Shown: positions 1 through 31,125 of the stretch, in pieces
Layout: each line of letters opens with the position of its first letter
Position numbering within the stretch: the stretch's first letter is position 1
From: Actinomycetes bacterium
Lineage (GTDB): Bacteria; Actinomycetota; Acidimicrobiia; Acidimicrobiales; Ilumatobacteraceae
Direction of reading: 5' to 3'
Length of the DNA: 64,000 bases
NCBI GenBank assembly: GCA_025359865.1
Contig: JANYDH010000083.1
Span: 1 to 64,000 of the forward strand
Position numbers and translations under genes: made by a program
The notes under the pieces: model-generated
What the model saw: the letters and a program-made list of their open reading frames with translations, nothing else
Databases searched by the model: none
What the model was told of the DNA's origin: nothing

Positions 1-56
1 CGGCATTGTGCGACAGCCTGAATAACGAAAGGTAGATACGAGGGTAGAGTTCTTCC

Positions 57-311
57 ATGAGTATCAATCTCAAGAGCGAACGCGCTGATCGACTCGCCCG
101 CGAACTCGCCGCGACGACTGGTGAAAGCCTCACCGACGCGATCACGATCGCGATCGCTGAACGCCTGGATCGTGAGCGCGGACGCAGGGCCCAATCCGCT
201 CGGCTCGCCGAGATTCTTCGTCTCGCGGACGAGTTCCAGCGGCTGCCTGTGCTCGATGATCGCACTCCCGACGAGATCCTTGGCTATGACCTGAATGGAC
301 TACCGACGTGA
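57..311 (+). CDS. VapB-type antitoxin
   Basis: This 84-residue protein looks like the antitoxin of a type II toxin-antitoxin pair, which binds the operator DNA and neutralises the partner nuclease. The first 45 residues (SINLKSERADRLARELA, then TGESLTDAI) resemble the short VapB fold with a conserved T-GES-T-A pattern seen in Rv0623-like antitoxins. The rest is charged and ends in DEILGYDLNGLP, the usual toxin-wrapping tail. It overlaps the PIN-domain gene downstream, which is the classic order. The family call comes from the motif and the neighbour; the cognate operator was not identified. Confidence 0.85.
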   Translation: MSINLKSERADRLARELAATTGESLTDAITIAIAERLDRERGRRAQSARLAEILRLADEFQRLPVLDDRTPDEILGYDLNGLPT

Positions 312-697
312 TGGTCGTCGACTCGTCCGCGCTCGCAGCGCTGCTTTTCGGCGAGCACAGCGCGCTCGATGTCGCCGCCCGGCTCGCCGAAGGCGCAGTG
401 GTGCTCGGGGCACCGACCCGTGTCGAAATCGGAATGGTGATCGAGGCTCGGAGCGGTTCTGATGGGGTACGCAAACTCGAGTCACTGCTGCGGTCGGCGG
501 CGATCGAGATCATCGGGTTCACGCCAGATCATGCGGCGGTCGCTCTCGAAGCGTTCAGACGGTACGGCAAAGGTCGACATCGCGCGGCATTGAACTTCGG
601 GGATTGCATGAGCTATGCGCTTGCGAAGTCGATGAACCTGCCGCTGCTGTTCGTGGGTGACGATTTCATCCACACCGACATCAACAGCGCGTTGTGA
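311..697 (+). CDS. VapC-type PIN-domain ribonuclease toxin
   Basis: This is a PIN-domain toxin of 128 residues, expected to cleave RNA (often tRNA) when freed from its antitoxin. The acidic residues of the PIN site are visible: Asp in MVVDSSAL at the N-terminus, Glu in TRVEIGMV near residue 40, Asp in NFGDCMSYALAK near residue 98, and Asp in FVGDDF near residue 115. The ATG start makes a TGATG junction with the antitoxin stop; a GTG one codon earlier (308) is an alternative. Length and order are typical of VapBC modules, so translation is probably coupled. The target RNA cannot be read from the sequence. Confidence 0.88.
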   Translation: MVVDSSALAALLFGEHSALDVAARLAEGAVVLGAPTRVEIGMVIEARSGSDGVRKLESLLRSAAIEIIGFTPDHAAVALEAFRRYGKGRHRAALNFGDCMSYALAKSMNLPLLFVGDDFIHTDINSAL

Positions 698-755
698 CGG
701 GGATCAAGCCGCTCGCGGCCAGGCGGAACGAGCTGAGGACACCGGCGGCGATGAT

Positions 756-1763
756 CTACTTCCTGCGCGCCCGAGCAACTTCGTAGGTGGCCAACGCAGC
801 GGCCGCCGAAACATTCAACGATGACAACCGCCCGAGCATCGGGATGGTGACCACCAGGTCGCACCGTTCGCGCACCAACCGCGAGAGGCCGGCGCCTTCG
901 GCACCCATCACCAGACAGATCGCGTCGGCCGCCAGGTCGCCCAGATCGAACAGAGAGCGATCGGCAGCATCGTCGAGACCGACCACCCAGATTCCGGCGT
1001 CCTTCATCTGGGCGAGCGCGGCGGGAATGCCGCCGACCATCGCCATCGGCACATACTCGACCGCACCCGCAGCCGCCTTTGCCACCGTTGGTGTGACGTG
1101 TACGGCGCGATGGCGCGGCAGTACGACGCCCTGCACACCGGCGCCCTCGCATGACCGCAGCAGTGCACCCAAGTTGCCGGGGTCGGTAACACCGTCGACG
1201 GCCACCAGAAACGGCACCTTGCCGGGGATTCGCCGGATCAATTCGGCAAGTTCCATCTCGGGGATGCCGTTGGCATACGCGATGATGCCCTGTGGTGATT
1301 CGCTGCGCGCTGCGGCCTCGAGTCGCCGACGGGCCACGTACTGCACCGGCACTCGCTCGTGCTTGGCGATCTCGATGATGTCACTGACCGTCTCACTCTC
1401 ATCGAGGTCGCTCGCGACCCAGATCTCACGGGCCCGGCGGGTACCGGCGACAAGCAACTCACGCACTGCCTGACGTCCTTCGACCTGCTCTCCGCCGAGC
1501 GTCTTTTCGGGCTTGCGTGGCGGAGCACCGGTTGGGTTGACACGGCCCGTGCGGCCGGCACCGTGCGACGAGAATTGCCGACTACCCGATGATCCATCGC
1601 GACCCTCGCGACCCTCACGGCCCCCGCGACCGCCGGAACCGCCGGAACCGCGGCTGCCGCTCGATCCGCCAGCGCTGCCTGACCCACCCGCGCTGCGCGA
1701 ACCGGGGGCCGTGGCCCGCTTCTTGGCACGTCCTGTGCCACCTGTACTGCGTCCGGGTTTCAC
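756..1763 (-). CDS. rlmB: 23S rRNA 2'-O-methyltransferase, RlmB/TrmH (SpoU) family
   Basis: This SPOUT-class RNA methyltransferase is expected to methylate a ribose 2'-O of 23S rRNA (G2251 in the E. coli enzyme). The substrate-binding domain begins near residue 90 (GEQVEGRQAVRELL). The C-terminal knot carries the three SpoU motifs: GNLGALLRSCEGAGV, LVMGAEGAGL, and IPMLGRLSSLNVSAA. The first ~85 residues are an unusual disordered Gly/Ser/Arg tract (GGSGSAGGSSGSRGSGG type), longer than in E. coli RlmB. The gene follows ispDF on the same strand. In Mycobacterium the order is ispD-ispF-cysS-rlmB, and here cysS is absent from the interval. Confidence 0.9.
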   Translation of the reverse strand: MKPGRSTGGTGRAKKRATAPGSRSAGGSGSAGGSSGSRGSGGSGGRGGREGREGRDGSSGSRQFSSHGAGRTGRVNPTGAPPRKPEKTLGGEQVEGRQAVRELLVAGTRRAREIWVASDLDESETVSDIIEIAKHERVPVQYVARRRLEAAARSESPQGIIAYANGIPEMELAELIRRIPGKVPFLVAVDGVTDPGNLGALLRSCEGAGVQGVVLPRHRAVHVTPTVAKAAAGAVEYVPMAMVGGIPAALAQMKDAGIWVVGLDDAADRSLFDLGDLAADAICLVMGAEGAGLSRLVRERCDLVVTIPMLGRLSSLNVSAAAALATYEVARARRK

Positions 1764-1794
1764 CCTGTTGTCTCCTAGCGTTCAGCTTCAGCGT

Positions 1795-2955
1795 TCAGCG
1801 TTCGGCGATCACTGCTACCGCCCAGCAGGCGATACCTTCGCGGCGACCGAGTGCACCCAGTCCTTCGGCACGACGCCCCTTCACTGTGACGGGGGCACCG
1901 GCGGCATCGCTGAGGTGCCCTTGCATCTCATTGCGGCGGGGAGCCAGTTTCGGCGCCTCGCATACAACAGAACAGTCGACGTTACCCACCCGCCAGCCCT
2001 TAGCGGCCACAAGCGCGGCCACCTCGCGCAGTATCAACAGCGAGTCGGCACCGGCCCAACGGGCATCGTTATCGGAAAAGTGCTCGCCGATGTCGCCCAA
2101 ACCGGCTGCCCCCAGCAATGCATCGGCAACCGCATGGGCGATCACATCGGCATCGCTGTGGCCGACCAAACCGCGGGCACCCTCGAAATGCACGCCGCCA
2201 AGCACAAGACGCCGAACAGGATCGTCGCTGAATCGGTGAATGTCGAAACCCTGGCCAACGCGCACGTTCATGCTCCCCTGCCCTCGTACGGGTCCGCCTT
2301 CATCAGCGTCCACCTTGGCACGCGCCCAGACCAGATCATCGGGATGGGTGATCTTGCGATTGTCCACCTCGCCTGGTATCGCCACCACTCGCCCACCGGT
2401 GGCTTCGACCAATGCGGCATCGTCGGTACCATCACCGCCATCAGCGTGGGCGAAACGGAGCACCGAGGCCCGGAATGCCTGCGGGGTTTGCACGGCGACG
2501 AGTCGGTCCCGCTGCGGCGTGTCGACAACTACGTTGCGCTCGTCGATCAGCTTGATCGTGTCGGTGACGGGCACGCCCGGAATCGCGGCGTCGGCCCCTG
2601 CAGTCACAGCGTCGATCACGGCGACGAACAGGCCGTCGGATGCGAACGGTCTGGCAGCGTCGTGCACGCACACGATGGTGGCGGCCGCAGGCACGGCCGA
2701 CAGCCCGGCCCGTACCGATTCGCTTCGGGTGGCACCGCCGGCTACAACGACCGACCCAAGGCCTTGTTCAATGACTACGTCAGCGGCCGGCACCACGATA
2801 ACGACGCCGCTGCTATGGCGCAGCGCTGCATCGACCGACAGATCGAGCATTCGCCGACCACCGATCGCCTCATACTGTTTCGCAGTACCGAACCGACTAC
2901 CGCTGCCCCCGGCGACGACCACGGTCCACACATTCTCGTTCTTGGCCTTCGGCAC
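1795..2955 (-). CDS. ispDF: bifunctional IspD/IspF (MEP isoprenoid pathway)
   Basis: This fusion protein joins two MEP-pathway enzymes: 2-C-methyl-D-erythritol 4-phosphate cytidylyltransferase and MEcPP synthase. The IspD half shows VVVAGGSGSRFG, KQYEAIGG and VHDAARPF. The IspF half starts with MNVRVGQGFDIHRF and contains LVLGGV, GHSDADVIAHAVADALLGA and GDIGEHF, including the zinc-binding Asp-x-His and His. The reading frame extends to 3072, but that would run 87 bp into the divergent regulator gene. I therefore prefer the GTG at 2955 (VPKAKNENVW); a TTG at 2964 is also possible. IspE, which catalyses the intervening step, is not in the window. Confidence 0.93.
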   Translation of the reverse strand: MPKAKNENVWTVVVAGGSGSRFGTAKQYEAIGGRRMLDLSVDAALRHSSGVVIVVPAADVVIEQGLGSVVVAGGATRSESVRAGLSAVPAAATIVCVHDAARPFASDGLFVAVIDAVTAGADAAIPGVPVTDTIKLIDERNVVVDTPQRDRLVAVQTPQAFRASVLRFAHADGGDGTDDAALVEATGGRVVAIPGEVDNRKITHPDDLVWARAKVDADEGGPVRGQGSMNVRVGQGFDIHRFSDDPVRRLVLGGVHFEGARGLVGHSDADVIAHAVADALLGAAGLGDIGEHFSDNDARWAGADSLLILREVAALVAAKGWRVGNVDCSVVCEAPKLAPRRNEMQGHLSDAAGAPVTVKGRRAEGLGALGRREGIACWAVAVIAER

Positions 2956-2985
2956 GGAGCCCAAGGGTAGTACGGTGACCGCCGC

Positions 2986-3648
2986 ATGGCTCACGAGGAT
3001 CTTCTTGCAGCAACCGAGTTTTTTTCCGGCGCGTCGCACGAGGTGTTGTGCACGATCACCGCAGCAGGCCATGAGCGCGATCTCGTTCGCGGCGACCTGC
3101 TATTTCGTGAGGCAGACTTTGCAGACGCCCTCTACGTCGTCGCCCGTGGCCGGTTGGCGATCGCTATTGCCAACCCGATCGACAACCGCGAGACCGTGGT
3201 CTCGCTGATGGAGCCTGGCGACCTGTTCGGCGAAATGGCGATGCTCGACGGCGGCCTCCGTTCGGCCATGGCTCGCGCGCTCGAACCGTCCACCGTGTTC
3301 GAGATCCCTTACGCAGCAGTGCTCGCGGTCTTCACCGGACAGCCGGATCTGCTGTGGGGAGTCACCCGCCTGTTGGCCCAACGCCTGCGGGCGATGGACG
3401 AAACCCTGGCTGACAGTGTGTTCCTCGATGTCACCGGTCGTACTGCGAAGCGGCTCTTGGAGCTGTCCGAGGGCGCCGACGAATTCACCCTTCCGGTGAC
3501 CCAGGAGGAGTTGGCCGGCATGGTCGGCGCGTCACGCGAGCGTGTCAACAAGGCGATCGCGAGCTTTATCCGCCTCGGATGGATCGCCCAGCACGAACGC
3601 CGGTACACAATCCTCAAACGCGAAAGCCTGCGGATCAGGGCACGCTGA
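2986..3648 (+). CDS. Crp/Fnr-family transcriptional regulator
   Basis: This 220-residue cytoplasmic transcription factor has an N-terminal cyclic-nucleotide-binding-like beta barrel (about residues 10-125: LVRGDLLFREADFADALYVVARG, GDLFGEMAMLDGG). A C-terminal winged helix follows, with recognition region TQEELAGMVGASRERVNKA near residues 168-186. The FGEMAMLDGG phosphate-binding-cassette pattern with a following Arg-Ser resembles cAMP-binding Crp proteins. No cysteine cluster of the Fnr type is present. It is divergent from ispDF, with about 30 bp between the preferred starts, so the two share a promoter region. Its regulon is unknown. Confidence 0.88.
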   Translation: MAHEDLLAATEFFSGASHEVLCTITAAGHERDLVRGDLLFREADFADALYVVARGRLAIAIANPIDNRETVVSLMEPGDLFGEMAMLDGGLRSAMARALEPSTVFEIPYAAVLAVFTGQPDLLWGVTRLLAQRLRAMDETLADSVFLDVTGRTAKRLLELSEGADEFTLPVTQEELAGMVGASRERVNKAIASFIRLGWIAQHERRYTILKRESLRIRAR

Positions 3649-3671
3649 ACCATGGGTCAGTCCGAGTGGCG

Positions 3672-4424
3672 TCATGCGTCTCGCCGGTTCGTCAGGAGCG
3701 CGCCGAACACGGTGATGGCACCGGCCACAGCAAAGAAGTACAACCCTGAACCGACGCGGCCGAGCCCACCTTCAAACGAATCGGGGTTGGCCATGCTGAT
3801 ACCCGCGTTGTACGGCAGCCATTTGAAGGGCTGGTCGACCCCAGCGGCGCTGAGGATGCCACCGATGATCGACTCGACCACGAGCGGCCACAAGATGAGT
3901 ATCGCCACAGCGGTAGGTGTATTGCGGATCAACAGACCCAACCCGAATCCGAGTAAGGCCACGATGGCCGCGAACAAGATCACGCCGGCAATGGCAGGCC
4001 GGCCGCTGGGCGCATCGACGAGATCGATGCGGCGATCGCGCGATGTGAGAATTGCCGCACCGACGTTGTAACTAAGGAGCACCACCAGACCCTCGACCAC
4101 CATCGCGAGCGAGACGGTGATGATCGCCTTGCCGATGATGACCCGCATTCGCTTCGGGGTTGCCGCGAACGTGGTGCGGATGGTGCCGAACCCGAACTCG
4201 CCCGTGATGGTGGCCGCACCGATCACACCGAGCAACATCGCCGTGACGACCGACGAGATCTGGACGGCGTTGAGCAGATCACGCGCGTTCATCTCGTCGT
4301 TGTTGTTCAGCGCAGCGATCAACACCGAGACGATCAAGGGGAACGCCACCGCAATGACGACGAGCACGAGGTTCATCCGGATGGTGCGGAGCTTGATCCA
4401 CTCGCTGCGTAGCACGTTGATCAC
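3672..4424 (-). CDS. ABC-2 type transporter permease
   Basis: This integral membrane protein of 250 residues has about six hydrophobic segments and the fold pattern of ABC-2 (drug/lipid/sodium export-type) permeases. Examples are MNLVLVVIAVAFPLIVSVL near the N-terminus, VVTAMLLGVIGAATITGEF with the family's TGEF turn, and a last segment YFFAVAGAITVFGALL. Its GTG start overlaps the stop of the upstream ATPase gene (GTGA), so the two are translationally coupled. In ABC-2 systems such a permease pairs with one ATPase. The surprise is the third operon member, a ProX-like binding lipoprotein. Substrate unknown. Confidence 0.85.
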   Translation of the reverse strand: MINVLRSEWIKLRTIRMNLVLVVIAVAFPLIVSVLIAALNNNDEMNARDLLNAVQISSVVTAMLLGVIGAATITGEFGFGTIRTTFAATPKRMRVIIGKAIITVSLAMVVEGLVVLLSYNVGAAILTSRDRRIDLVDAPSGRPAIAGVILFAAIVALLGFGLGLLIRNTPTAVAILILWPLVVESIIGGILSAAGVDQPFKWLPYNAGISMANPDSFEGGLGRVGSGLYFFAVAGAITVFGALLTNRRDA

Positions 4425-5395
4425 GACGCGCCTCCTACATCTGCACGGCGGCCATCAGTGCCGTCGGTGAAGGTGGACGTCGTGGTGGTGAAGACCCCGG
4501 AGTGATACTCCTGCACCGAGGCAGTGGCCTTCAAGAACGCATCCTCGAGTGAGCCGGACTGATTGGAAAGCTCGTGGAGCACGACTCCGTACCGGCCGGC
4601 CAACTCGCCGACATCGACGGTGGTGGGACCACGCACCTCGATCGTGGTGGCATCGACCTGGGCGATGACGGCACCGCCCGCCTGGAGCGCTTCGACGAGG
4701 GTGGCGACCCGCGGGCTCTGCACGCGAACCCAGTGGTCGCCATATCGATCGACGAAATCGGCAACCGTGCACTGTTCGATCAGGTGGCCCTGGCCGATCA
4801 CCACCAGCGAAGTGGCCATGAGCGACATCTCCGACAACAGGTGACTGCTCACGAGCACGGTCTTACCCTGCTCGGCGAGATACACGAGCACGTCACGGAT
4901 CCAGCGAATGCCCTCGGGGTCGAGACCGTTGGCGGGTTCGTCGAGGATCACGGTATTCGGATCACCGAGCAGCACGCCAGCGAGCCCGAGACGTTGTTTC
5001 ATACCGAGCGAGTAGGTACGCAACCGCTTGCCCGCCGCCGCGCTGAGACCGACCGTTTCCAGCACCTCATCGGCTCGTTTCAGCGGAAGCCCGTTCGATG
5101 CTGCGACCCACCGAAGATGGTTGCGCGCTGAGCGACCCGGATGCACATACCCGGCATCGAGCAACGCGCCCACTTCGTGGAGTGGCTTGGCGAGTGACCG
5201 GTATGGCGTGCCGTCAAACAAGGTCTGGCCGGCATCGGCTCGGTCGAGTCCCAACATGCACCGCATGGTTGTGCTCTTTCCGGAACCATTCGGTCCCAAG
5301 AAACCGGTGACCATGCCGGGATGCACCTCGAAGCTGAGATCCGCGACAGCAACCTTGCGACCGAACCGCTTGGTGAGGCCGCTGACCGAGATCAT
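4421..5395 (-). CDS. ABC transporter ATP-binding protein (ABC-2 associated)
   Basis: This 324-residue ATPase has Walker A GPNGSGKST near residue 35, a signature helix reading YSLGMKQRLGLAG (the variant usual in ABC-2/NatA/DrrA-type ATPases), Walker B VILDEPANGLDP, and a switch His in VLVSSHLL. Past residue ~210 the C-terminal extension with VRVQSPRVATLVEAL and LEDAFLKAT matches the DrrA/CcmA family. It overlaps both neighbours by 4 bp, placing it in the middle of a three-gene operon. It powers the adjacent permease at the inner face of the membrane. Confidence 0.92.
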   Translation of the reverse strand: MISVSGLTKRFGRKVAVADLSFEVHPGMVTGFLGPNGSGKSTTMRCMLGLDRADAGQTLFDGTPYRSLAKPLHEVGALLDAGYVHPGRSARNHLRWVAASNGLPLKRADEVLETVGLSAAAGKRLRTYSLGMKQRLGLAGVLLGDPNTVILDEPANGLDPEGIRWIRDVLVYLAEQGKTVLVSSHLLSEMSLMATSLVVIGQGHLIEQCTVADFVDRYGDHWVRVQSPRVATLVEALQAGGAVIAQVDATTIEVRGPTTVDVGELAGRYGVVLHELSNQSGSLEDAFLKATASVQEYHSGVFTTTTSTFTDGTDGRRADVGGAS

Positions 5396-6363
5396 TGGCC
5401 GGTCGGCACCGTTGCCATGAACTGCTTGGCGACCTCGTCGGGCGTCAACTTGTCGACGGCGACTTTGACCATCAGCGCCCTCAGCACATCGGTGGTCAGC
5501 TTGTCGTCGACCTTTTTCAGCGCAGCCACGACTTCAGGTGTGGCCGAGCCGAGCGTGAGTAGCGGGATGACCACATTGTCGAGGCCGATCGCCTTGTCGT
5601 CTTTCAACGGAATGAACCCCTGGGTCACCACAGCGGCGTTGCTGGCGAGCACAGCGCCACAATCGATTGCGCCGCTCTTCAGGCTGTCTGTGACGAGTTC
5701 GGCACCGAGTGGAACAAACGCTTTAAACTCAGCCTTGTAGCTGTCCTTGAATCCAGCCAGACCGAATGGCGTCTGCTTTTCGAACTCCGCCGGTGCGCCG
5801 ATCGTGATCTTGTCGGATACCTTGGCGAGATCGGTGAGCGTCTTCAGCGAATATTGCTCGGCCGTGGCTTGTGTGCAGACGATGACCTCTCCATTTTGTG
5901 CAGTGGAAGGATCCGCGATCGTGAGCGTGGGCGGCAACGTGACCTTGAGCCGCGCCACCTGGTCGGCCGTCGCCTTCACGTCTTGCGTGGCTTTCGGGTC
6001 CTTCTGCGTGAGCAAAAACGTGAGCAGCGAGTTCGTGAACTCGGGGACGAGTTGGATCTCGTCGTTCTGCATCGCCGTGTAGTACTGCTCGCGCCCGCCG
6101 ACCGGATCCTTACGACCGACCCGCAACCCGGCGTCTTCCAATGCCTCGGCATAGATCTCCGCCACGACCCGGCTCTCGAGGGACTCGCCTGACGCCACAT
6201 TGATGGTCTGGGCGACATTGCCAGCGGCAGCCGTGCTGCTCCGGTCGGCATCGTCGCTGCACGCGGCAAGCAGCATGGCGCCGCCGACGCCGAGCGCAAT
6301 GATTGGGCGGGCAAACGCCGAGCGGGCGCCAGCTGGGCGGCGGACGGGGACGAGCCTATTCAC
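5392..6363 (-). CDS. ProX/OpuAC-type substrate-binding lipoprotein
   Basis: This secreted solute-binding lipoprotein has 323 residues and resembles glycine betaine/carnitine/choline-binding OpuC/ProX proteins. The GTG at 6363 is chosen because GGAGGAAG lies five bases upstream; longer in-frame starts run into a tandem repeat. A signal peptide ends in the lipobox LLAAC (Cys 35). The mature part shows the OpuAC pattern: INVASGESLESRVVAEIYAEALE, REQYYTAMQNDEIQLVPEFTNSL, GAPAEFEKQTPFG and ADQVARL. It is first in an operon with an ABC-2 ATPase and permease rather than an importer-type permease. The ligand is likely a quaternary amine, but that is inferred from the family only. Confidence 0.85.
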   Translation of the reverse strand: MNRLVPVRRPAGARSAFARPIIALGVGGAMLLAACSDDADRSSTAAAGNVAQTINVASGESLESRVVAEIYAEALEDAGLRVGRKDPVGGREQYYTAMQNDEIQLVPEFTNSLLTFLLTQKDPKATQDVKATADQVARLKVTLPPTLTIADPSTAQNGEVIVCTQATAEQYSLKTLTDLAKVSDKITIGAPAEFEKQTPFGLAGFKDSYKAEFKAFVPLGAELVTDSLKSGAIDCGAVLASNAAVVTQGFIPLKDDKAIGLDNVVIPLLTLGSATPEVVAALKKVDDKLTTDVLRALMVKVAVDKLTPDEVAKQFMATVPTGQ

Positions 6364-6443
6364 GACTTCCTCCAGGGGAGATGAGAGACGTGCAGCGTAG
6401 ACCGGCACGGACAAAATCAGCAGAACAGGACTCAGAGACTCTC

Positions 6444-6478
6444 CTTCCAACGACCCTTCCAACGACCCTTCCAACGAT
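6444..6478. repeat. 12-bp direct tandem repeat, about 3 units
   Basis: CTTCCAACGACC is repeated nearly three times, the last unit ending GAT. It lies between the divergent binding-protein and amine-oxidase genes, so it sits in or next to their promoters. It may be slippage-prone; no function is evident. Confidence 0.8.
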
Positions 6479-6520
6479 GAGCACCCGTCATCTGGCTACA
6501 TCCCGTGCCAGTATCGAGCC

Positions 6521-7759
6521 GTGTCGGAACGCACCCCCGTTGCATGGAGCGTTTCACACTGGTGCGACGACCCGTACAGCAACGGCGCGTGGAGCGTCGT
6601 GCTGCCGGGTGGTTCGCCAGCTGACCGCATCCAGATCGGACAGCCGATCGACGATCGATTCATCCTTGCTGGCGAGGCGACCCACGGAACCCAGGCCGCA
6701 ATGACACACGGCGCGTGGGAGACCGGCGTTGCCGCCGCGAAGTGGGCGATCACGGACGGCGCCCGCTCGGTCATCGTGGTCGGGGCAGGCTTTGCCGGAT
6801 TGGGGGCCGCACGTACCCTGCACGATGCCGGGCTCGATGTGATCGTGCTCGAAGCTCGCGAACGCATCGGCGGTCGCGCCAACACCGTCGACGTGGGAGA
6901 TGTCCGCGCCGACATGGGCGCCGCCTGGCTTCAACAGTTCCCCCGCAACGGTCTCGCGCGACGGGCTGAGCAACTCGGATTGCAACTTCACCGAACGACG
7001 TTCGATACACCGTTGACCGCCGCTCCCGACGGGCCGGCGGGCGATATCGCGGCAGCACTCGAACGCCTCCGGTCGCTGGTCGACATCTCCGACCGTCGCT
7101 CTCTGGCCTCGATCCTTTTGCCTCACGTCGATGCCTTGCCGTCGGCAGATCGGCGTACCGCGCAGTTCGCTATCGATCTCGACCTGATCCTGGAATCAGG
7201 CGTCAGACTGGAGCAGATGTCGGCTTGGGCCTTCATCGAGCCAGGGGTGGGCGCCGACGATCACTTCCTGCCGAACGGATATGTCGATCTGCTCACGGAT
7301 GCGGCACAAGGCCTGGACATTCGACTCGGCACAGCCGTGAAACGGATCTCGTGGAACGCAGACGGCGTAACCGTGGATGGCCAGCGCGCGGATCGTTGCA
7401 TTTGCACCATCCCGATTGCGGTTCTCGACAGCGTTAAGTTGCAACCCGGTCTGCCCGCCGAGCACACGGCGGCGCTCGCCCGATTGACGACCGGCCGCGT
7501 CGAGAAGGTGGCGTTGCGATTCTCGACACGCTGGTGGCCGGTCGCCCCCGGCGGCTACCTGCGCTGGTACGACACGCCGCCAGCATGGGGCGAGTGGCTG
7601 GACCTGACCGACGGCGTGGGCGCACCGGTTGTCGCCGGTCTCATTGCCGACGCGGCAATCGACCGTCATCACTTGGGCAGAACCGACGACGAGATCGCGC
7701 ATGCGGCAGCGGCGGCATTCGCACAATGGGCCGACGCCGCACGCCGCACCACCCCGTAG
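6521..7759 (+). CDS. FAD-dependent amine oxidase, apparently circularly permuted
   Basis: This 412-residue flavoprotein has the sequence blocks of the monoamine/polyamine oxidase family, but in permuted order. Ordinary members start with the Rossmann GxGxxG and end with a W-DPY-GS / FAGEAT / HGA-SG block. Here that C-terminal block comes first: W14, DPYSNGAWSVVLPG (17-30), RFILAGEATHG (46-56) and HGAWETGVAAAKWAI (63-77). After a four-residue link, the FAD-binding VIVVGAGFAGLGAARTL (85-101) and EARERIGGRA (111-120) follow. The protein then runs through the substrate domain and stops near where a normal enzyme would reach its W-DPY block. All parts are present once, so the fold could close. The GTG start has no better upstream alternative. 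Substrate unknown. Confidence 0.85.
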   Translation: MSERTPVAWSVSHWCDDPYSNGAWSVVLPGGSPADRIQIGQPIDDRFILAGEATHGTQAAMTHGAWETGVAAAKWAITDGARSVIVVGAGFAGLGAARTLHDAGLDVIVLEARERIGGRANTVDVGDVRADMGAAWLQQFPRNGLARRAEQLGLQLHRTTFDTPLTAAPDGPAGDIAAALERLRSLVDISDRRSLASILLPHVDALPSADRRTAQFAIDLDLILESGVRLEQMSAWAFIEPGVGADDHFLPNGYVDLLTDAAQGLDIRLGTAVKRISWNADGVTVDGQRADRCICTIPIAVLDSVKLQPGLPAEHTAALARLTTGRVEKVALRFSTRWWPVAPGGYLRWYDTPPAWGEWLDLTDGVGAPVVAGLIADAAIDRHHLGRTDDEIAHAAAAAFAQWADAARRTTP

Positions 7760-10202: not shown

Positions 10203-13200
10203 TCAACTGCGGGGGAATTGATCGAGCGCAACCTGAAGGAGTCGGCACTCGCCATCTTCGACAGCGTGAGCCAGACCGGGCCGTGCAGGTACCACGATCC
10301 GCCGGGGCAGCACCACACCGAGCAGATCACCGTCAGTCTCGTGCGCCCCCGACATGATCAGCCCTCGCCTGCTGCGCCGCACGATTGACGTCCAGTGACC
10401 ATAGGCCGACCGCAGCGCTTCGGGTCGTGCGGCGATCGCCACGAGTAGGCCGGGGCGCGGCGTTGCGAGCACACCCGCCAAACGTCCTGCGGCGTCATCA
10501 ACGAGTTCGGCATCGTCGATCAACACCAGAGCCGGCCCCGCGCACGGAAGGCGGTCGAGTAACTCATCGACCGCAAGCACGTGGGCATCAACCGAGTGGG
10601 CGTGGGCAGCCAATGCAGATCGGCGCGGCGTGAGCATTCCACACCAGCGCGCTCCGGTCGACTGAACACGGGGGGCGTCGTGCCAGGCATGCAGTAACCG
10701 GGCCAAGCAGCTACTGCGGCCGCTGCGGGCCGGGCCGAGCACACACAGATGCTCACCATCGGGCACCTCGCTGCGCTGCTGCTCGGTGGTATCGAACCAC
10801 CGGCCCAGTGTCATTTCAATGCCAAACTCCGTCCATTCGATGGGAACCAGTTCGATGGCGTCGATCACCGCCGGCATCTCGGAGATCCGCGTGACGATTC
10901 GTCGGCTACCGAACGTCGTGAGATCGGCTGATGCCGTCAACGGGGAGGAGATGAGCGGTGCGGGGGCCACCAGCTGACCTTCGGCACCGGCCAATTCGAT
11001 GTCGGTTTCGTCGATCACCCGCATGCGACCTGGGACCGCCGGCGGAACGACGCTTGCGGATACGCCCAACATCGCCGCCTCGGCAGGGTCATGGAGGTGC
11101 AGCAACCATCGATGAGCGCACGTCGTGACCATCCATGTGGGGACCGATGCAACATCGGCGGCTCCGATCAACGCTGTCACGTCGCGCGTGCCGGTCGTCA
11201 TGATCCGGTGGAAGAGCCCGGCCTCGGCCGTCATGTCAGGCCGCTCGAGTTCGATCCGCAACGCACCCACCCCATCCACAACCAACACCGTTGGCGTACC
11301 GAGGGCACCACTCGGTGCCGCCCGGCCACGTGTGACCGATTCGTTGGTAAGTTCACCGAACAGCCGCATCAAGCGTTCTCGCTCGTGTAGTCGCACCACG
11401 CCAGCACAACCCGGATGCTCGGCGAACGAGTCCCAGACGTTGTCTCCCGCGGCATCGATCACGTACACGACGGTGCCGGCACGCAGCGCCTGAGCTGACA
11501 ATGTCGCCAACGTCGATGTCACCCCGCTTCCCTTGGCTCCGATGACCGCCAGGTTGCCGTCCCCTACCTGCCACACCAGGGGCCGACGTTGTTGCGAATC
11601 GGGTAGATCCACCACACCGACCGCTCCGTCGGCGACGGTGTCGGCATCGAGCACCGCCGGCAATGGATCGGTCCACGGCCGCCGGGGCGCGACGAGTCCA
11701 TTGATCCGCGCTGCCTGCACGATGTGCTCGGCGAGCACTGTCGCCTCGGTACGGTCGCCCTTGATGAGCCGACCGGTATGCGCCGTCTGGAACGTGAGGT
11801 ACTCACCCGCACCCAGGCGCATGACCGCCCGGCCAGGAGTCCGCCGGGAGAGCAACGCCGGCGCCGGGTCGCCGACCACATCCATCGCCTCGCCAATGTC
11901 TTGTACTCGTAGAGCGATCCGCAGGTTCGTGTTGGCCCGGATGTCTTCGCTGATCACACCGCCGGGCCTCTGGGTGGCGAGCACGAGATGCACCCCGAGG
12001 CTGCGGCCGCGCTGGGCGATGCCAACGAGCGCGTGAAGAAACTCGGCCTGCTCAACGGCGAGCGCAGCGAACTCATCGACGACGACCACGAGCCGGGCGA
12101 GCACGGGTTCGCCGCACAGTCGCCGCAACCCGACCAGATCGGCCGCACCATGACGGCGAAGCACGCGCTCGCGGTGATGCAACTCGGCCGACAAGCTGCG
12201 CAGCGCTCGCTCGGCCAGATTGTCGTCGAGGTCGGTCACCACGCCGACCACGTGGGGCAGGTCGCTACAGACGTCGAACGTCGCGCCGCCCTTGTAGTCG
12301 ACCAGCACGAAGTTGAGATGGTCGGGGCTCGACCGCGCTGCCAGACCGAGCACGAGCGCACGCAACAACTCGCTCTTGCCCGCCCCGGTCGTGCCCGCCA
12401 GCAAGGCATGCGGACCATCACGAACCAGGTCGATATCGACCACACCATCGGCAGCGCAGCCGATCGGCGTGGAAGGTGGCGCGTCTGGGGACAAGCCCGA
12501 CCACGCAGCTGCGATAGCTTCGGCGTCGAGGGGCCGGCCGGCCGCGCCGCTGAGCAGATCGACCAGCGACACCGTGTTCACCAGTTCGCCCGCGCCCGCC
12601 AGAAGGTCTTCTGGATCGCGCAGCCCCGCCAGAATCCGTACCGCCCACGCGGCACGGGCCACAGTCATCCCGGCGATCCGCACGCTCTGAGGTACATCCT
12701 CTTCGGTCACATCGGGCCTCCACCGCGCCGACCCCTCGCCAACGCATTCCAGACGGGCCGTGCAGATCGCCGGTGCCAGATCATTCGGGCCCGTGATCAC
12801 CACCAACGCCGGCGACAAGTGACCGGCCACCAGCCGACGCAGCGGGCTGGTCCGCATCGCCAGCGCGTCGACCAGATCGGTGACGATCACGAGGTGTGTG
12901 CCCTCCAGTCCGCTTGTGTCACGCAGCAGCACCGCGGCCGCCTGCTCGTCGAACAGGCGCGGCTGCCCCGAACCGTCGTCGAGATGCGGCAACCCGGTTG
13001 TCCACGACCACCGGTCCGCTGAATCGGTCACGACGATCAACCGCCAATCCGCCGGACCGGCGTTGACCGCCAGTTGCACGACGAGTGACCGCACGACACC
13101 AGCACCCCCTTGTCCTGCGACGGCCAAGCACGTACCCGGGCCGAGATCGACCGCTACCGGGGCATCGGGCAGGCAACCGGACAGTTCGAGCGCCGCCCAG

Positions 13201-14075
13201 CACGATGCCGGCACCTCATGCCCGGATTCGAGCACCGGGTCCCAGGCAACATCACCGACGCCCAACGCCAAGCGGAATGCGTCCGGATGGTCGGCGCGCC
13301 GCTCCCACAGGCGCGTTCCAAGGCCATCGAGCGTGCCGACCGCCCTGCCGAGCGATCCGGCAACCACTCGCTGGTGGTCAAATCGATCAGCACGCTGCGC
13401 GACGAGGGCACGCTCAAATCGCTGTAGTGCTGTGCCCTCGGCCATTCCGGTACGGCGACGCTTGGTTCGCATCGATCGCCACTGCACGAGCCAGCTGGCA
13501 CCGGCCGCCAAAGCCCCGACGAACCCGAACACGAAGAACAGCGGTTGGTGGAGCAGCACCGCCATCAGCCCAGCACCGCCGAGCGCCACCGCTGCCGGCA
13601 CCAGTCCACCGGGACGTTCGATGCGATCGGATTCCGACGTGGGCACCGGAATCGGGGTGGGCCGCCAGACGGGAAGCGTACGGACCGCTCGCGTGACGGT
13701 GCGGCGAGCGGTGCGATGACCGCCCGAGTTGGTGTCGTAGTCGGCGTAGCGTAGGACGAGTCGGCTGTGACCCAGATCGACCACGTGCGAGTCTCCGTCG
13801 GGCCGAAAGCTCAGCGCTGCTTCGACCTCGTTCGGCAGAACGGTCCAAGCCTGCCATGACCCGTCAATCACCACCGGCAGCCGACCAGCGAGTTGGACGA
13901 GTTCCAGCGTCTCATCGACGCCGACCACCACTCGCAGGTGGAAGGCCTCGATCCCACGATCGTCGATGGTGATGTCAGCCAATCGGTGACGGCCGACGGT
14001 GAAGGCACCAGGCCCCAGACAGATCGTTGCCCCGGCATCAGGGCCGGCTTCGCAGCAGGCGGTCCACGTGTACAT
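10203..14075 (-). CDS. FHA-FtsK/SpoIIIE type VII secretion ATPase (EssC-like)
   Basis: This large membrane ATPase of about 1290 residues is predicted to drive export of WXG100 proteins. An FHA-like domain is N-terminal (GAFTVGRHRLADITIDDRGIEAFHLRV, about residues 22-110). Two hydrophobic segments follow near residues 160-205. Three FtsK-type ATPase domains come next. The first is intact, with Walker A GTTGAGKSELL near residue 560 and Walker B VVVVDEFAAL. The second (GAKGSGVTS, ~843) and third (GPARSGRSS, ~1112) lack the Walker Lys. N-terminal FHA plus FtsK is the Firmicutes EssC layout; mycobacterial EccC lacks FHA. ATG 14075 is chosen because the extension to 14258 is low-complexity and collides with the next gene. 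No other secretion components are adjacent. Confidence 0.85.
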   Translation of the reverse strand: MYTWTACCEAGPDAGATICLGPGAFTVGRHRLADITIDDRGIEAFHLRVVVGVDETLELVQLAGRLPVVIDGSWQAWTVLPNEVEAALSFRPDGDSHVVDLGHSRLVLRYADYDTNSGGHRTARRTVTRAVRTLPVWRPTPIPVPTSESDRIERPGGLVPAAVALGGAGLMAVLLHQPLFFVFGFVGALAAGASWLVQWRSMRTKRRRTGMAEGTALQRFERALVAQRADRFDHQRVVAGSLGRAVGTLDGLGTRLWERRADHPDAFRLALGVGDVAWDPVLESGHEVPASCWAALELSGCLPDAPVAVDLGPGTCLAVAGQGGAGVVRSLVVQLAVNAGPADWRLIVVTDSADRWSWTTGLPHLDDGSGQPRLFDEQAAAVLLRDTSGLEGTHLVIVTDLVDALAMRTSPLRRLVAGHLSPALVVITGPNDLAPAICTARLECVGEGSARWRPDVTEEDVPQSVRIAGMTVARAAWAVRILAGLRDPEDLLAGAGELVNTVSLVDLLSGAAGRPLDAEAIAAAWSGLSPDAPPSTPIGCAADGVVDIDLVRDGPHALLAGTTGAGKSELLRALVLGLAARSSPDHLNFVLVDYKGGATFDVCSDLPHVVGVVTDLDDNLAERALRSLSAELHHRERVLRRHGAADLVGLRRLCGEPVLARLVVVVDEFAALAVEQAEFLHALVGIAQRGRSLGVHLVLATQRPGGVISEDIRANTNLRIALRVQDIGEAMDVVGDPAPALLSRRTPGRAVMRLGAGEYLTFQTAHTGRLIKGDRTEATVLAEHIVQAARINGLVAPRRPWTDPLPAVLDADTVADGAVGVVDLPDSQQRRPLVWQVGDGNLAVIGAKGSGVTSTLATLSAQALRAGTVVYVIDAAGDNVWDSFAEHPGCAGVVRLHERERLMRLFGELTNESVTRGRAAPSGALGTPTVLVVDGVGALRIELERPDMTAEAGLFHRIMTTGTRDVTALIGAADVASVPTWMVTTCAHRWLLHLHDPAEAAMLGVSASVVPPAVPGRMRVIDETDIELAGAEGQLVAPAPLISSPLTASADLTTFGSRRIVTRISEMPAVIDAIELVPIEWTEFGIEMTLGRWFDTTEQQRSEVPDGEHLCVLGPARSGRSSCLARLLHAWHDAPRVQSTGARWCGMLTPRRSALAAHAHSVDAHVLAVDELLDRLPCAGPALVLIDDAELVDDAAGRLAGVLATPRPGLLVAIAARPEALRSAYGHWTSIVRRSRRGLIMSGAHETDGDLLGVVLPRRIVVPARPGLAHAVEDGECRLLQVALDQFPRS

Positions 14076-14256: not shown

Positions 14257-15093
14257 ATGACATCGCCTCACCGCCAGCACCAGCACCCGCACCTCTACGC
14301 CCGCCTCCATTGCGAATGGGGTCGATTGGCCCACGCTCGGTCGGCGCTTGCGGTGGCTCGGTCGTGGCGACTCGCGGGCGAGCCGAACTTCGAATCGCTC
14401 GACGACCTCTTGCGGCTCGCTGGGTACGGGGCGATCGGCGACCCGACCGGCGGCGACGACGTGCTCCGGCAGCTGATCTCTCTCGCCCATTCCGACGCCT
14501 TGGCCGCTCGCGTGGTTCTACAACGACTGCTACCCGGGCTGATCGGAGTCGGCCGCCGTAGGGGTGTCGCGGATACCACGGGCATTGGCGCAGTCCGCGA
14601 TTCGGACGACCTGCTTGCAACTGCGTGGACCGTGATCCGTACCTACCCGATCGCTCACCGACCCAACTATGTGGCCGCCGGATTGCTCCGCGAAATCGAC
14701 TATGTCGCCTATCGGTTGCCATACCGGCGACTCGCCCGGTTCGTCCCCACGCCAGCCACCACCTTCGAGCAACGAACCGCGGCCAACATTTCGGCCGGCC
14801 GCAACCCGTTCAACGACTCGAGCAACGCCGATTCGAGTTGCGTCGATTTTGTCGTCACCGACTCGTTCGCTGCCGACGCGTTCGATGACACATCGCTGAC
14901 GTTGCAGCAGGTGTTCGAACATGCTCGACGAACCGGAATCGACGGAAACCAGATCGAGCTGCTGCAACGGTTGGCCGATGGTGCAAGCACTGCCGACCTA
15001 GCGGGAGAACGCCACGTCACGGCACGCACGATCCGCAACCACCGCGATGCGACCGTGCGGGCCCTTCGGGAACTGGCCCTCGCAGATGGGTAG
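14257..15093 (+). CDS. HTH protein with sigma-region-4/LuxR-like C-terminus
   Basis: This is a 278-residue protein of unknown function. The last ~55 residues look like a helix-turn-helix of the sigma-70 region 4 or LuxR class: IDGNQIELLQRLADGASTAD followed by LAGERHVTARTIRNHRDATVRAL. The middle part is helical and carries a conserved-looking DLLATAWTVIRTYP segment that recalls sigma-factor-like proteins of actinobacteria. No receiver, membrane or signal sequence is seen. It is transcribed away from the FHA-FtsK gene, and the intergenic repeats make it a candidate local regulator. The exact family was not recognised. Confidence 0.7.
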   Translation: MTSPHRQHQHPHLYARLHCEWGRLAHARSALAVARSWRLAGEPNFESLDDLLRLAGYGAIGDPTGGDDVLRQLISLAHSDALAARVVLQRLLPGLIGVGRRRGVADTTGIGAVRDSDDLLATAWTVIRTYPIAHRPNYVAAGLLREIDYVAYRLPYRRLARFVPTPATTFEQRTAANISAGRNPFNDSSNADSSCVDFVVTDSFAADAFDDTSLTLQQVFEHARRTGIDGNQIELLQRLADGASTADLAGERHVTARTIRNHRDATVRALRELALADG

Positions 15094-29924: not shown

Positions 29925-29946
29925 TGCCGGATGATAGTCAGCACGG

Positions 29947-30477
29947 GTGACCACCTCGCACCGCCGACCGATGCACCACGAACCCGGACTCGAATTGGTC
30001 GATGTCGTCGATGACACCGACACCGTGACGCACACTGTATCGCGAGCCGAGATGCGCGCTGGCCGACTGCGGCATCGCGCCGTATTCATCGGAGTCGTAC
30101 ACCCCGATGGGCGGGTGCTTGTACATCAGCGGAGCCATGCAAAGGACCTGTGGCCAGGAATGTGGGATCTTGCCGTCGGGGGTGTCGTCGGCGCCGGCGA
30201 GCGGTACGACGAAGCCGCCACGCGTGAACTCGCGGAGGAGATCGGCATTGCCGATGCACAACCGCTGTTGATCGGCGGCGGAGCGTTCAGTGATGAGTCC
30301 GTGGATCTGATCGGGCGGTGTTACACGGTGGTCACACCGGGGCCCTTTCACTTTGCCGACGGCGAAGTGATCCAGGCCGAGTGGGTTCCCCTGTCCGCTC
30401 TCGCAACCATGATCTGCGAGCGCGAGTTTCTCCCCGACTCGGTTGCGTTGTTGCTCGCGCTGCTGTTGAACGGGTGA
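29947..30477 (+). CDS. Nudix hydrolase
   Basis: This 176-residue Nudix protein has the box GGVVGAGERYDEAATRELAEEIGI at about residues 78-101. It matches Gx5Ex7REUxEEXGU with all key acids. The sequence MHHEPGLELVDVVDD, then HRAVFIGVVHPDGRVLVHQRS, resembles the isopentenyl-diphosphate isomerase/YfcD subgroup rather than MutT. It probably hydrolyses a nucleoside diphosphate-X compound or a related phosphate. The GTG start sits 22 bp from the divergent amidohydrolase start. Confidence 0.9.
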   Translation: MTTSHRRPMHHEPGLELVDVVDDTDTVTHTVSRAEMRAGRLRHRAVFIGVVHPDGRVLVHQRSHAKDLWPGMWDLAVGGVVGAGERYDEAATRELAEEIGIADAQPLLIGGGAFSDESVDLIGRCYTVVTPGPFHFADGEVIQAEWVPLSALATMICEREFLPDSVALLLALLLNG

Positions 30478-30558
30478 CCTTTCCCCGGTCCGTTGTGCAC
30501 TGTCCCACATGATGTCGTGGCCGGCGCGGAAGTCCGGCTCGAACAACGAGGAGACACC

Positions 30559-30828
30559 ATGCTGACGTACGGAGCAAACCCAGAACAGCTCACCAGTCTT
30601 GGCCGGAACATGAAGCAGCAGATCGAGGCAATCAACGGCGTCATCAGCGCCGTAGGGGGTGCGCTCGGTGGCACCACGTGGACCGGTCCGGCCCGCGACC
30701 AGTTCGAATCGGAGTGGAACACTCAGTTCCGCACTGCGCTCAGCCGGCTCACCGAAGCGTTCGACGCTGCCGGCCAGGACTGCATCAATCGGTCGACCGA
30801 CCTCCAACGGGTGATGGGGCCACGCTGA
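30559..30828 (+). CDS. WXG100-family protein (ESAT-6-like)
   Basis: This is a typical WXG100 protein of 89 residues: two helices flanking a central W-T-G turn (GGTTWTGPARDQFESEW). It has the leading MLTYGANPEQLTSLG and a helical C-terminus. The ATG has an excellent Shine-Dalgarno sequence, GAGGAG seven bases upstream. WXG100 proteins are exported by type VII systems and act as dimers. The nearest likely motor is the FHA-FtsK gene 16.5 kb away; no EccB, EccD, MycP or partner WXG gene is adjacent, so it may be a solitary substrate. Confidence 0.93.
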   Translation: MLTYGANPEQLTSLGRNMKQQIEAINGVISAVGGALGGTTWTGPARDQFESEWNTQFRTALSRLTEAFDAAGQDCINRSTDLQRVMGPR

Positions 30829-30840
30829 ACGGATGCGGTC

Positions 30841-31125
30841 ATGCCGGATACGATGCTGGGCGTGCTGATCGTCGAGTTCACCATCGAGCCATTCGTCGAG
30901 GGTCATCCGGGCCCCCACGTACTCTCGGCGATCGCGGCCGCCGAGACACTTGGTGCCATTGTCGAGTTCGGTCCATTCGGGTCCAGCATCCGTATACCTG
31001 CGGCCAGCGTGGGCGAGGTCAGCGGTGCGGTACTCGACGCAGCGTTCGCCAACGGGGCCACCCATGTCACGCTGCATGCGGCCCACTTGCATGACACCCC
31101 CGTCGAACCCCAGGGGCGCTCATGA
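30841..31125 (+). CDS. YkoF/thiamine-binding-like small protein
   Basis: This is a 94-residue single-domain protein with the beta-alpha-beta pattern of YkoF/MTH1187 (DUF77/thiamine-binding) proteins. The key segment VEFTIEPFVEGHPGP, then TLGAIVEFGPFGSSIRIP, aligns with the family's P-G and VE-GP-ST block. Ligand binding by these proteins (thiamine or HMP) is known in other species; here it is only inferred. Its stop overlaps the start of the HTH gene downstream (ATGA), so the two are coupled. Confidence 0.6.
   Translation: MPDTMLGVLIVEFTIEPFVEGHPGPHVLSAIAAAETLGAIVEFGPFGSSIRIPAASVGEVSGAVLDAAFANGATHVTLHAAHLHDTPVEPQGRS

What the first reader, a model, noticed from the sequence alone, without database searches (positions are those of the whole stretch)
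10203..14075. EssC-like (FHA) type VII ATPase without other ESX components
FHA followed by FtsK repeats is the Firmicutes EssC layout, unusual in an actinobacterium where EccC has no FHA. Walker A is intact only in the first of three ATPase domains. No EccB, EccD, EccE or mycosin gene occurs in the window; the only WXG100 gene is 16.5 kb away.
Basis: partly seen in the sequence, partly recalled or inferred. Interest (0 to 1): 0.6.

Follow-up and report, generated by a model that had tools for sequence, protein, structure and literature searches.

The report
Split type VII secretion ATPase–WXG100 pair
The gene is a real, conserved type VII secretion ATPase of an actinobacterial branch that normally carries an FHA domain, and it is probably not an orphan: the small WXG100 protein 16.5 kb away is present in every near-complete relative that has the ATPase, so the two look like the separated halves of one very small secretion system.

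Summary
The gene is real: window 10203-14075, on the minus strand. It encodes FHA, two TM segments, D0 and three FtsK-type domains. D1 has intact Walker A and B motifs. D2 has lost its Walker lysine (GSGVTS). D3 has arginine instead (SGRSS), as in many relatives. The family is right, but an FHA domain is not unusual here. The protein falls in a large actinobacterial branch of FHA-bearing EccC/EssC ATPases, outside Bacillota EssC and away from mycobacterial EccC. Its genome holds a second FHA-ATPase (contig C104) with its own tandem-WXG protein and kinase, resembling T7SSd. The window's clade ('type A') is distinct and occurs in many genomes without that second system. EccD/YukD and EssB are undetected in 17 genomes. 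Key result: the WXG100 gene at 30559-30828 is a conserved single-copy family. Among 78 near-complete family genomes it is present in 39/39 with type A and 4/39 without, in both genome-size classes. Some ATPase-less relatives keep only broken WXG100 copies. In a related Acidimicrobiia MAG the two genes are adjacent. Most likely this is a minimal, two-locus type VII secretion pair. Secretion itself is untested.

The parts
10203..14075 (-). type A FHA-EccC/EssC-family ATPase (1290 aa; alternative start 14258 gives 1351 aa)
   Evidence: most orthologues 35-45% identical over full length in the same family
13860..14045 (-). FHA-type N-terminal domain; GR kept, phosphothreonine-binding Ser replaced (GIEAFH)
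   Evidence: S-R-x-H is lost in all type A, kept in most type B
13488..13610 (-). two transmembrane segments
   Evidence: hydropathy
12372..12395 (-). D1 Walker A GTTGAGKS (intact)
11961..12440 (-). D1, FtsK/SpoIIIE domain, the only one with both canonical Walker motifs
11514..11540 (-). D2 P-loop position GAKGSGVTS, Walker lysine lost
   Evidence: other small residues in type A relatives, Thr in most of the sister clade
10710..10736 (-). D3 P-loop position GPARSGRSS, Lys to Arg
30559..30828 (+). WXG100 protein (89 aa), proposed partner/substrate of the ATPase
   Evidence: co-occurrence
14257..15093 (+). divergent sigma-factor-like HTH gene (F1) beside the ATPase; core gene of the family, possibly a regulator
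   Evidence: also present in genomes without the ATPase

Best explanation
The gene encodes the motor of a very small type VII secretion system whose parts lie at two loci. Inferred mechanism: the ATPase sits in the membrane by its two TM segments and oligomerises, and D1 alone hydrolyses ATP. D2 and D3 act as non-catalytic docking domains that bind the C-terminal end of the WXG100 protein encoded at 30559-30828. That protein is exported, probably as a homodimer, perhaps with unidentified cargo. The FHA domain has lost its phosphothreonine-binding serine and would be a protein-docking module rather than a phospho-sensor. Shown: domain anatomy, clade, conservation and tight co-occurrence of ATPase and WXG100. 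Inferred: interaction, oligomerisation, export, cargo.
For: The protein aligns to solved EccC, EssC and YukB sequences over D1 and beyond. The tree puts it in the T7SS ATPase family, in an actinobacterial FHA branch. D1 catalytic motifs are invariant across orthologues. The WXG100 family is single-copy and co-occurs with type A: 39 both, 0 ATPase only, 4 WXG100 only, 35 neither among 78 near-complete genomes, separately in small and large genomes. The type B partner family shows no such link (p 0.72). WXG100 copies are damaged in 4 of 16 ATPase-less genomes against 1 of 68 with the ATPase. The WXG100 model is a helical hairpin whose best PDB matches are all Esx/WXG100 proteins. In Acidimicrobiia MAG L184, in the sister clade, a WXG100 gene sits 27 bp upstream of the ATPase gene. 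WXG100 genes sit beside other FHA-ATPases in Luteimicrobium, Cellulosimicrobium and Propionibacterium.
Against: No secretion data. The genes are not linked in most genomes, so the pairing rests on co-occurrence, and the genomes share ancestry, so the p-values overstate independence. Intact WXG100 remains in several genomes where no type A ATPase was found (G003, G010, G036, G149, G157, G163), though these also lack the neighbouring F1 gene, so either an assembly gap or recent loss of the locus is possible. The window's WXG100 scores below the curated Pfam and NCBIfam cut-offs. No membrane partner is known.
Confidence: 0.6

Rival explanations
1. The ATPase is a T7SS motor paired with this WXG100, but it works with further unlinked membrane components not recognised here, so the system is a dispersed T7SSd-like machine rather than a minimal pair. 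(This overlaps with the best explanation on the pairing and differs on completeness.)
For: All studied T7SS need extra membrane proteins. The sister clade in Arthrobacter, Curtobacterium and Rothia has two conserved envelope proteins (about 930 and 450 aa) and a kinase near the ATPase. Type A genomes could not be downloaded whole to look for genes with the same distribution.
Against: No conserved T7SS-like gene next to either locus in about 20 type A genomes. YukD/EccD and EssB absent in 17 genomes, with B. subtilis as positive control.
Confidence: 0.45
2. The ATPase is a second motor that shares the components of the C104 (type B) T7SS in the same cell.
For: G000 encodes both; a few other genomes (G011, G012, G015, G052) also do.
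Against: Most genomes with type A have no type B partner protein (found in only 13 of 200). Type-B-only genomes lack the type A WXG100. The two WXG families do not track each other.
Confidence: 0.08
3. It is not a secretion motor: a membrane FtsK/HerA-type ATPase adopted for another task (DNA handling, envelope, signalling), with the WXG100 as a non-secreted partner.
For: No cluster; loss of D2 lysine and of the FHA phospho-binding serine; a sigma-like gene beside it.
Against: Clade membership, D1 similarity to EccC/EssC and co-occurrence with a WXG100; related clades sit next to WXG100 genes.
Confidence: 0.12
4. The co-occurrence is a side effect of shared ancestry and genome streamlining; the two genes have unrelated roles.
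For: Both are missing from the small-genome genera; genomes are phylogenetically dependent.
Against: The association holds within both genome-size classes. Broken WXG100 copies occur in genomes lacking the ATPase in otherwise positive genera g13 and g14.
Confidence: 0.12

Closest known systems
T7SSd (TsdC, Actinomycetota; Garrett et al. 2024, PMC11217815)
   Same: Actinobacterial FHA-bearing EssC/EccC ATPase, WXG100 protein, no ubiquitin-like YukD protein
   Different: No kinase, TsdH or TsdI recognised beside it; ATPase and WXG100 unlinked; FHA lacks the phosphothreonine-binding serine said to be conserved in TsdC
T7SSb EssC (Bacillota)
   Same: FHA, two TM, D0-D3 layout
   Different: Falls outside the Bacillota EssC clade; no EssB or EsaB; scores 278 bits against the EssC cut-off 778; D2 lysine lost
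T7SSa EccC (mycobacterial ESX)
   Same: Three FtsK-type ATPase domains, two TM, D1 similarity
   Different: EccC lacks FHA; no EccD-type domain found; below EccCa cut-off; EsxA/EsxB pair replaced by one lone WXG100
Type B locus of the same genome (C104; L015)
   Same: FHA-ATPase of the same broad actinobacterial branch
   Different: FHA serine kept, D2 lysine kept, linked tandem-WXG protein and kinase; in relatives also a PP2C phosphatase and RHS-repeat proteins

Membership tests
EccC/EssC T7SS ATPase family | two TM + D0 + FtsK-type D1-D3, D1 homologous to EccC/EssC | tested here: met
T7SSb (EssC equivalog) | score over the TIGR03928 cut-off and placement with Bacillota EssC | tested here: not met
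   277.6 against 778.4 bits; outside the Bacillota clade
T7SSb (EssC equivalog) | EssB and EsaB present in the genome | tested here: not met
   PF10140 and PF08817 none in 17 genomes; control B. subtilis positive
T7SSa (ESX) | EccC without FHA, over TIGR03924 cut-off | tested here: not met
   260 against 509 bits; FHA present
T7SSa (ESX) | EccB present | tested here: inconclusive
   PF05108 none in 17 genomes, but no control genome rang
T7SSa (ESX) | EccD (YukD-like domain) present | tested here: not met
   PF08817 none in 17 genomes; the control that rang was B. subtilis YukD, not an EccD
T7SSa (ESX) | EccE and mycosin present | not tested
T7SSd | FHA ATPase in an actinobacterium with WXG100, no YukD | tested here: met
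   WXG100 unlinked
T7SSd | kinase TsdD, TsdH and TsdI encoded at the ATPase locus | tested here: not met
   no conserved neighbour of that kind in about 20 loci; TsdH/TsdI profiles were not available
T7SSd | phosphothreonine-binding FHA residues conserved | tested here: not met
   S-R-x-H replaced in type A
T7SSd | clusters with TsdC of Olsenella/Bifidobacterium in a tree | tested here: inconclusive
   only one Bifidobacteriaceae sequence on a long branch; Olsenella not included
WXG100 superfamily (30559-30828) | about 90-100 aa helical hairpin with W-x-G at the turn | tested here: met
   profile scores below curated cut-offs
T7SS (functional) | ATPase-dependent export of the WXG100 | not testable with these tools
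   needs experiment

The most novel reading that the evidence does not exclude
A two-gene type VII secretion system: one FHA-ATPase plus one lone WXG100 at separate loci, with no other dedicated component, widespread in a family of Acidimicrobiia.
Probability: 0.22. Interest if true: 0.75.

Novelty: new variant of a known kind. Interest (0 to 1): 0.5.

Why it matters
The minimal parts list of a type VII secretion system is open: ATPase and WXG100 are the only parts shared by nearly all subtypes. A lineage that keeps just these two conserved together, unlinked and without the known membrane partners, would be a natural minimal system and could test what the ATPase can do alone. Single unlinked WXG100 genes in an actinobacterium also run against the 2014 statement that actinobacterial WXG100 genes are always bicistronic pairs (PMC3935865). 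No paper in the searched library joins type VII secretion with Acidimicrobiia or Ilumatobacter.

Tried and rejected
1) F1 (14257-15093), adjacent and divergent in most type A loci, first looked like a dedicated regulator; it is a core gene in 169/200 family genomes, also where no ATPase exists, so adjacency is weak evidence. 2) The antisense ORF 29938-31092, which gene scoring preferred, was rejected: plus-strand genes there (NUDIX, WXG100, a 94-aa ORF) have homologues or conserved synteny. 3) Pseudogene or decaying ATPase: rejected, the motif pattern is clade-wide. 4) Copper-handling, betaine-transport and enoyl-CoA hydratase neighbours: local synteny without T7SS meaning. 5) EccB search had no positive control. 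7) Profile A6 of the sister clade's 930-aa envelope protein was built but not searched, because the last genome search went to EssB. 8) Mirror-tree analysis was not done.

Full report
What is there. The gene runs 10203-14075 on the minus strand (1290 aa; ATG at 14258 would give 1351 aa). Pfam finds FtsK_SpoIIIE (1.8e-36) and a weak FHA-like hit (PF16697, 3.6e-6); NCBIfam finds EssC, EccCa and EccCb models, all far below their cut-offs. By sequence the nearest solved structures are an FtsK/SpoIIIE-type chain of the EccC kind (4nh0), Bacillus YukB and EccC5. Hydropathy gives two adjacent TM segments.

Motifs. In an alignment with type A relatives, D1 keeps GTTG[SA]GKS and the Walker B D-E in every full-length sequence. 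The D2 lysine is replaced, mostly by V, A, T or G; the D3 lysine is mostly R; and the FHA S-R-x-H loses its serine. The state is therefore inherited and not decay. Related actinobacterial clades show D2 Thr or Arg and D3 Lys or Arg. In S. aureus EssC, D2 Walker mutations abolish association with EsaA, EssA and EssB, and FHA2 recruits EssB (PMC9436818); no EssB was found here.

Family placement. A scan of genome contigs returned relatives from many actinobacteria, many with FHA-type N-termini. A FastTree tree of 126-128 sequences separates four plasmid-borne T7SSa EccC, a Bacillota EssC clade (support 1.0) and the actinobacterial sequences. The window protein sits in a type A plus C clade (0.989) next to Acidimicrobiia, Actinoplanes, Winkia, Rothia, Curtobacterium and Arthrobacter sequences (0.989 in the full-length tree; the D1 tree is less resolved). 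Neighbour genes shared at high identity with MAGs named Ilumatobacteraceae suggest that family for the window.

Second system in the same genome. Contig C104 holds another FHA-ATPase (36% identical), followed by a 194-aa tandem-WXG protein at the contig end and flanked by a Ser/Thr kinase gene. Its relatives carry RHS-repeat proteins, a PP2C phosphatase and an FHA-like protein, as in T7SSd-like systems (PMC11217815). The tandem-WXG profile is found in only 13 of 200 family genomes.

The WXG100. The ORF at 30559-30828 aligns with homologues in other genomes (W-x-G, 37-70% identity), is predicted to be a helical hairpin (pLDDT 89) and matches EsxA/EsxB structures best (TM about 0.8, E about 0.01). 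Its local synteny (GH38, M20 peptidase, NUDIX, WXG100, then small-protein, HTH and HAD genes) is largely conserved, without T7SS genes. Sequence scores against the general models are below curated cut-offs.

Co-occurrence. I scored the ATPase (profile A5, excluding FtsK and type B, counting four fragmentary cases) and the WXG100 (profile A4, E < 1e-20) in 200 family genomes, transcribing the lists by hand. In 78 of the 79 near-complete genomes (one could not be identified in the printed lists): both 39, ATPase only 0, WXG100 only 4, neither 35. Without the fragments the table is 37, 0, 6, 35. In all 200: 68, 7, 14, 111; the 7 ATPase-only genomes are all incomplete. The pattern holds below and above 2.45 Mb. 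Of the genomes without ATPase, G088 has an in-frame stop, G099 lacks the N-terminus, and G110 and G037 are frameshifted; among those with ATPase only G018 shows a stop (Fisher p 0.004). P-values ignore shared ancestry.

Adjacency elsewhere. In L184 (Acidimicrobiia) a WXG100 gene over the Pfam cut-off lies directly upstream of the ATPase. The A4 profile finds WXG100 genes right beside FHA-ATPases of Luteimicrobium, Cellulosimicrobium and Propionibacterium. So linkage is seen in related lineages, and the separated arrangement in this family may be derived (inference).

Missing parts. YukD/EccD and EssB were not found in 17 genomes; EccB also not, but without a working control. EccE and mycosin were not searched.

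Conclusion. The finding is real but reinterpreted: an actinobacterial FHA-ATPase with a probable unlinked WXG100 partner. Interaction, export, stoichiometry and cargo are inferred.

Noticed in passing
L015 (G000:C104) 3-7424: Second T7SS-type locus of the genome: FHA-ATPase, tandem-WXG 194-aa protein at the contig end, divergent Ser/Thr kinase.
   Followed up: partly
L118:8552-9700 and L120:8652-9764: In genus g19 the slot beside F1 holds a 370-382 aa protein with the type A FHA domain and scraps of the interdomain region but no ATPase domains: a remnant or a repurposed FHA protein.
   Followed up: partly
window:14257-15093: Sigma-factor-like HTH protein (F1), present in 169/200 family genomes, nearly always single copy, no Pfam hit in the window copy; function unknown.
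   Followed up: partly
L195:2805-3377: An ECF-type sigma factor gene directly upstream of a related ATPase in another Acidimicrobiia MAG (identified by eye).
   Followed up: no
G000:C43:5962-6244 (L002:1486-1758 -): A third WXG100-like gene in the same genome, with a protein kinase gene about 1 kb away.
   Followed up: no
window:29938-31092 minus: Long antisense ORF covering the NUDIX, WXG100 and 94-aa genes; likely a GC-rich shadow ORF that automatic callers could prefer.
   Followed up: yes
L086:14052-18749: RHS-repeat protein of 1565 aa near a type B locus, a candidate substrate.
   Followed up: no
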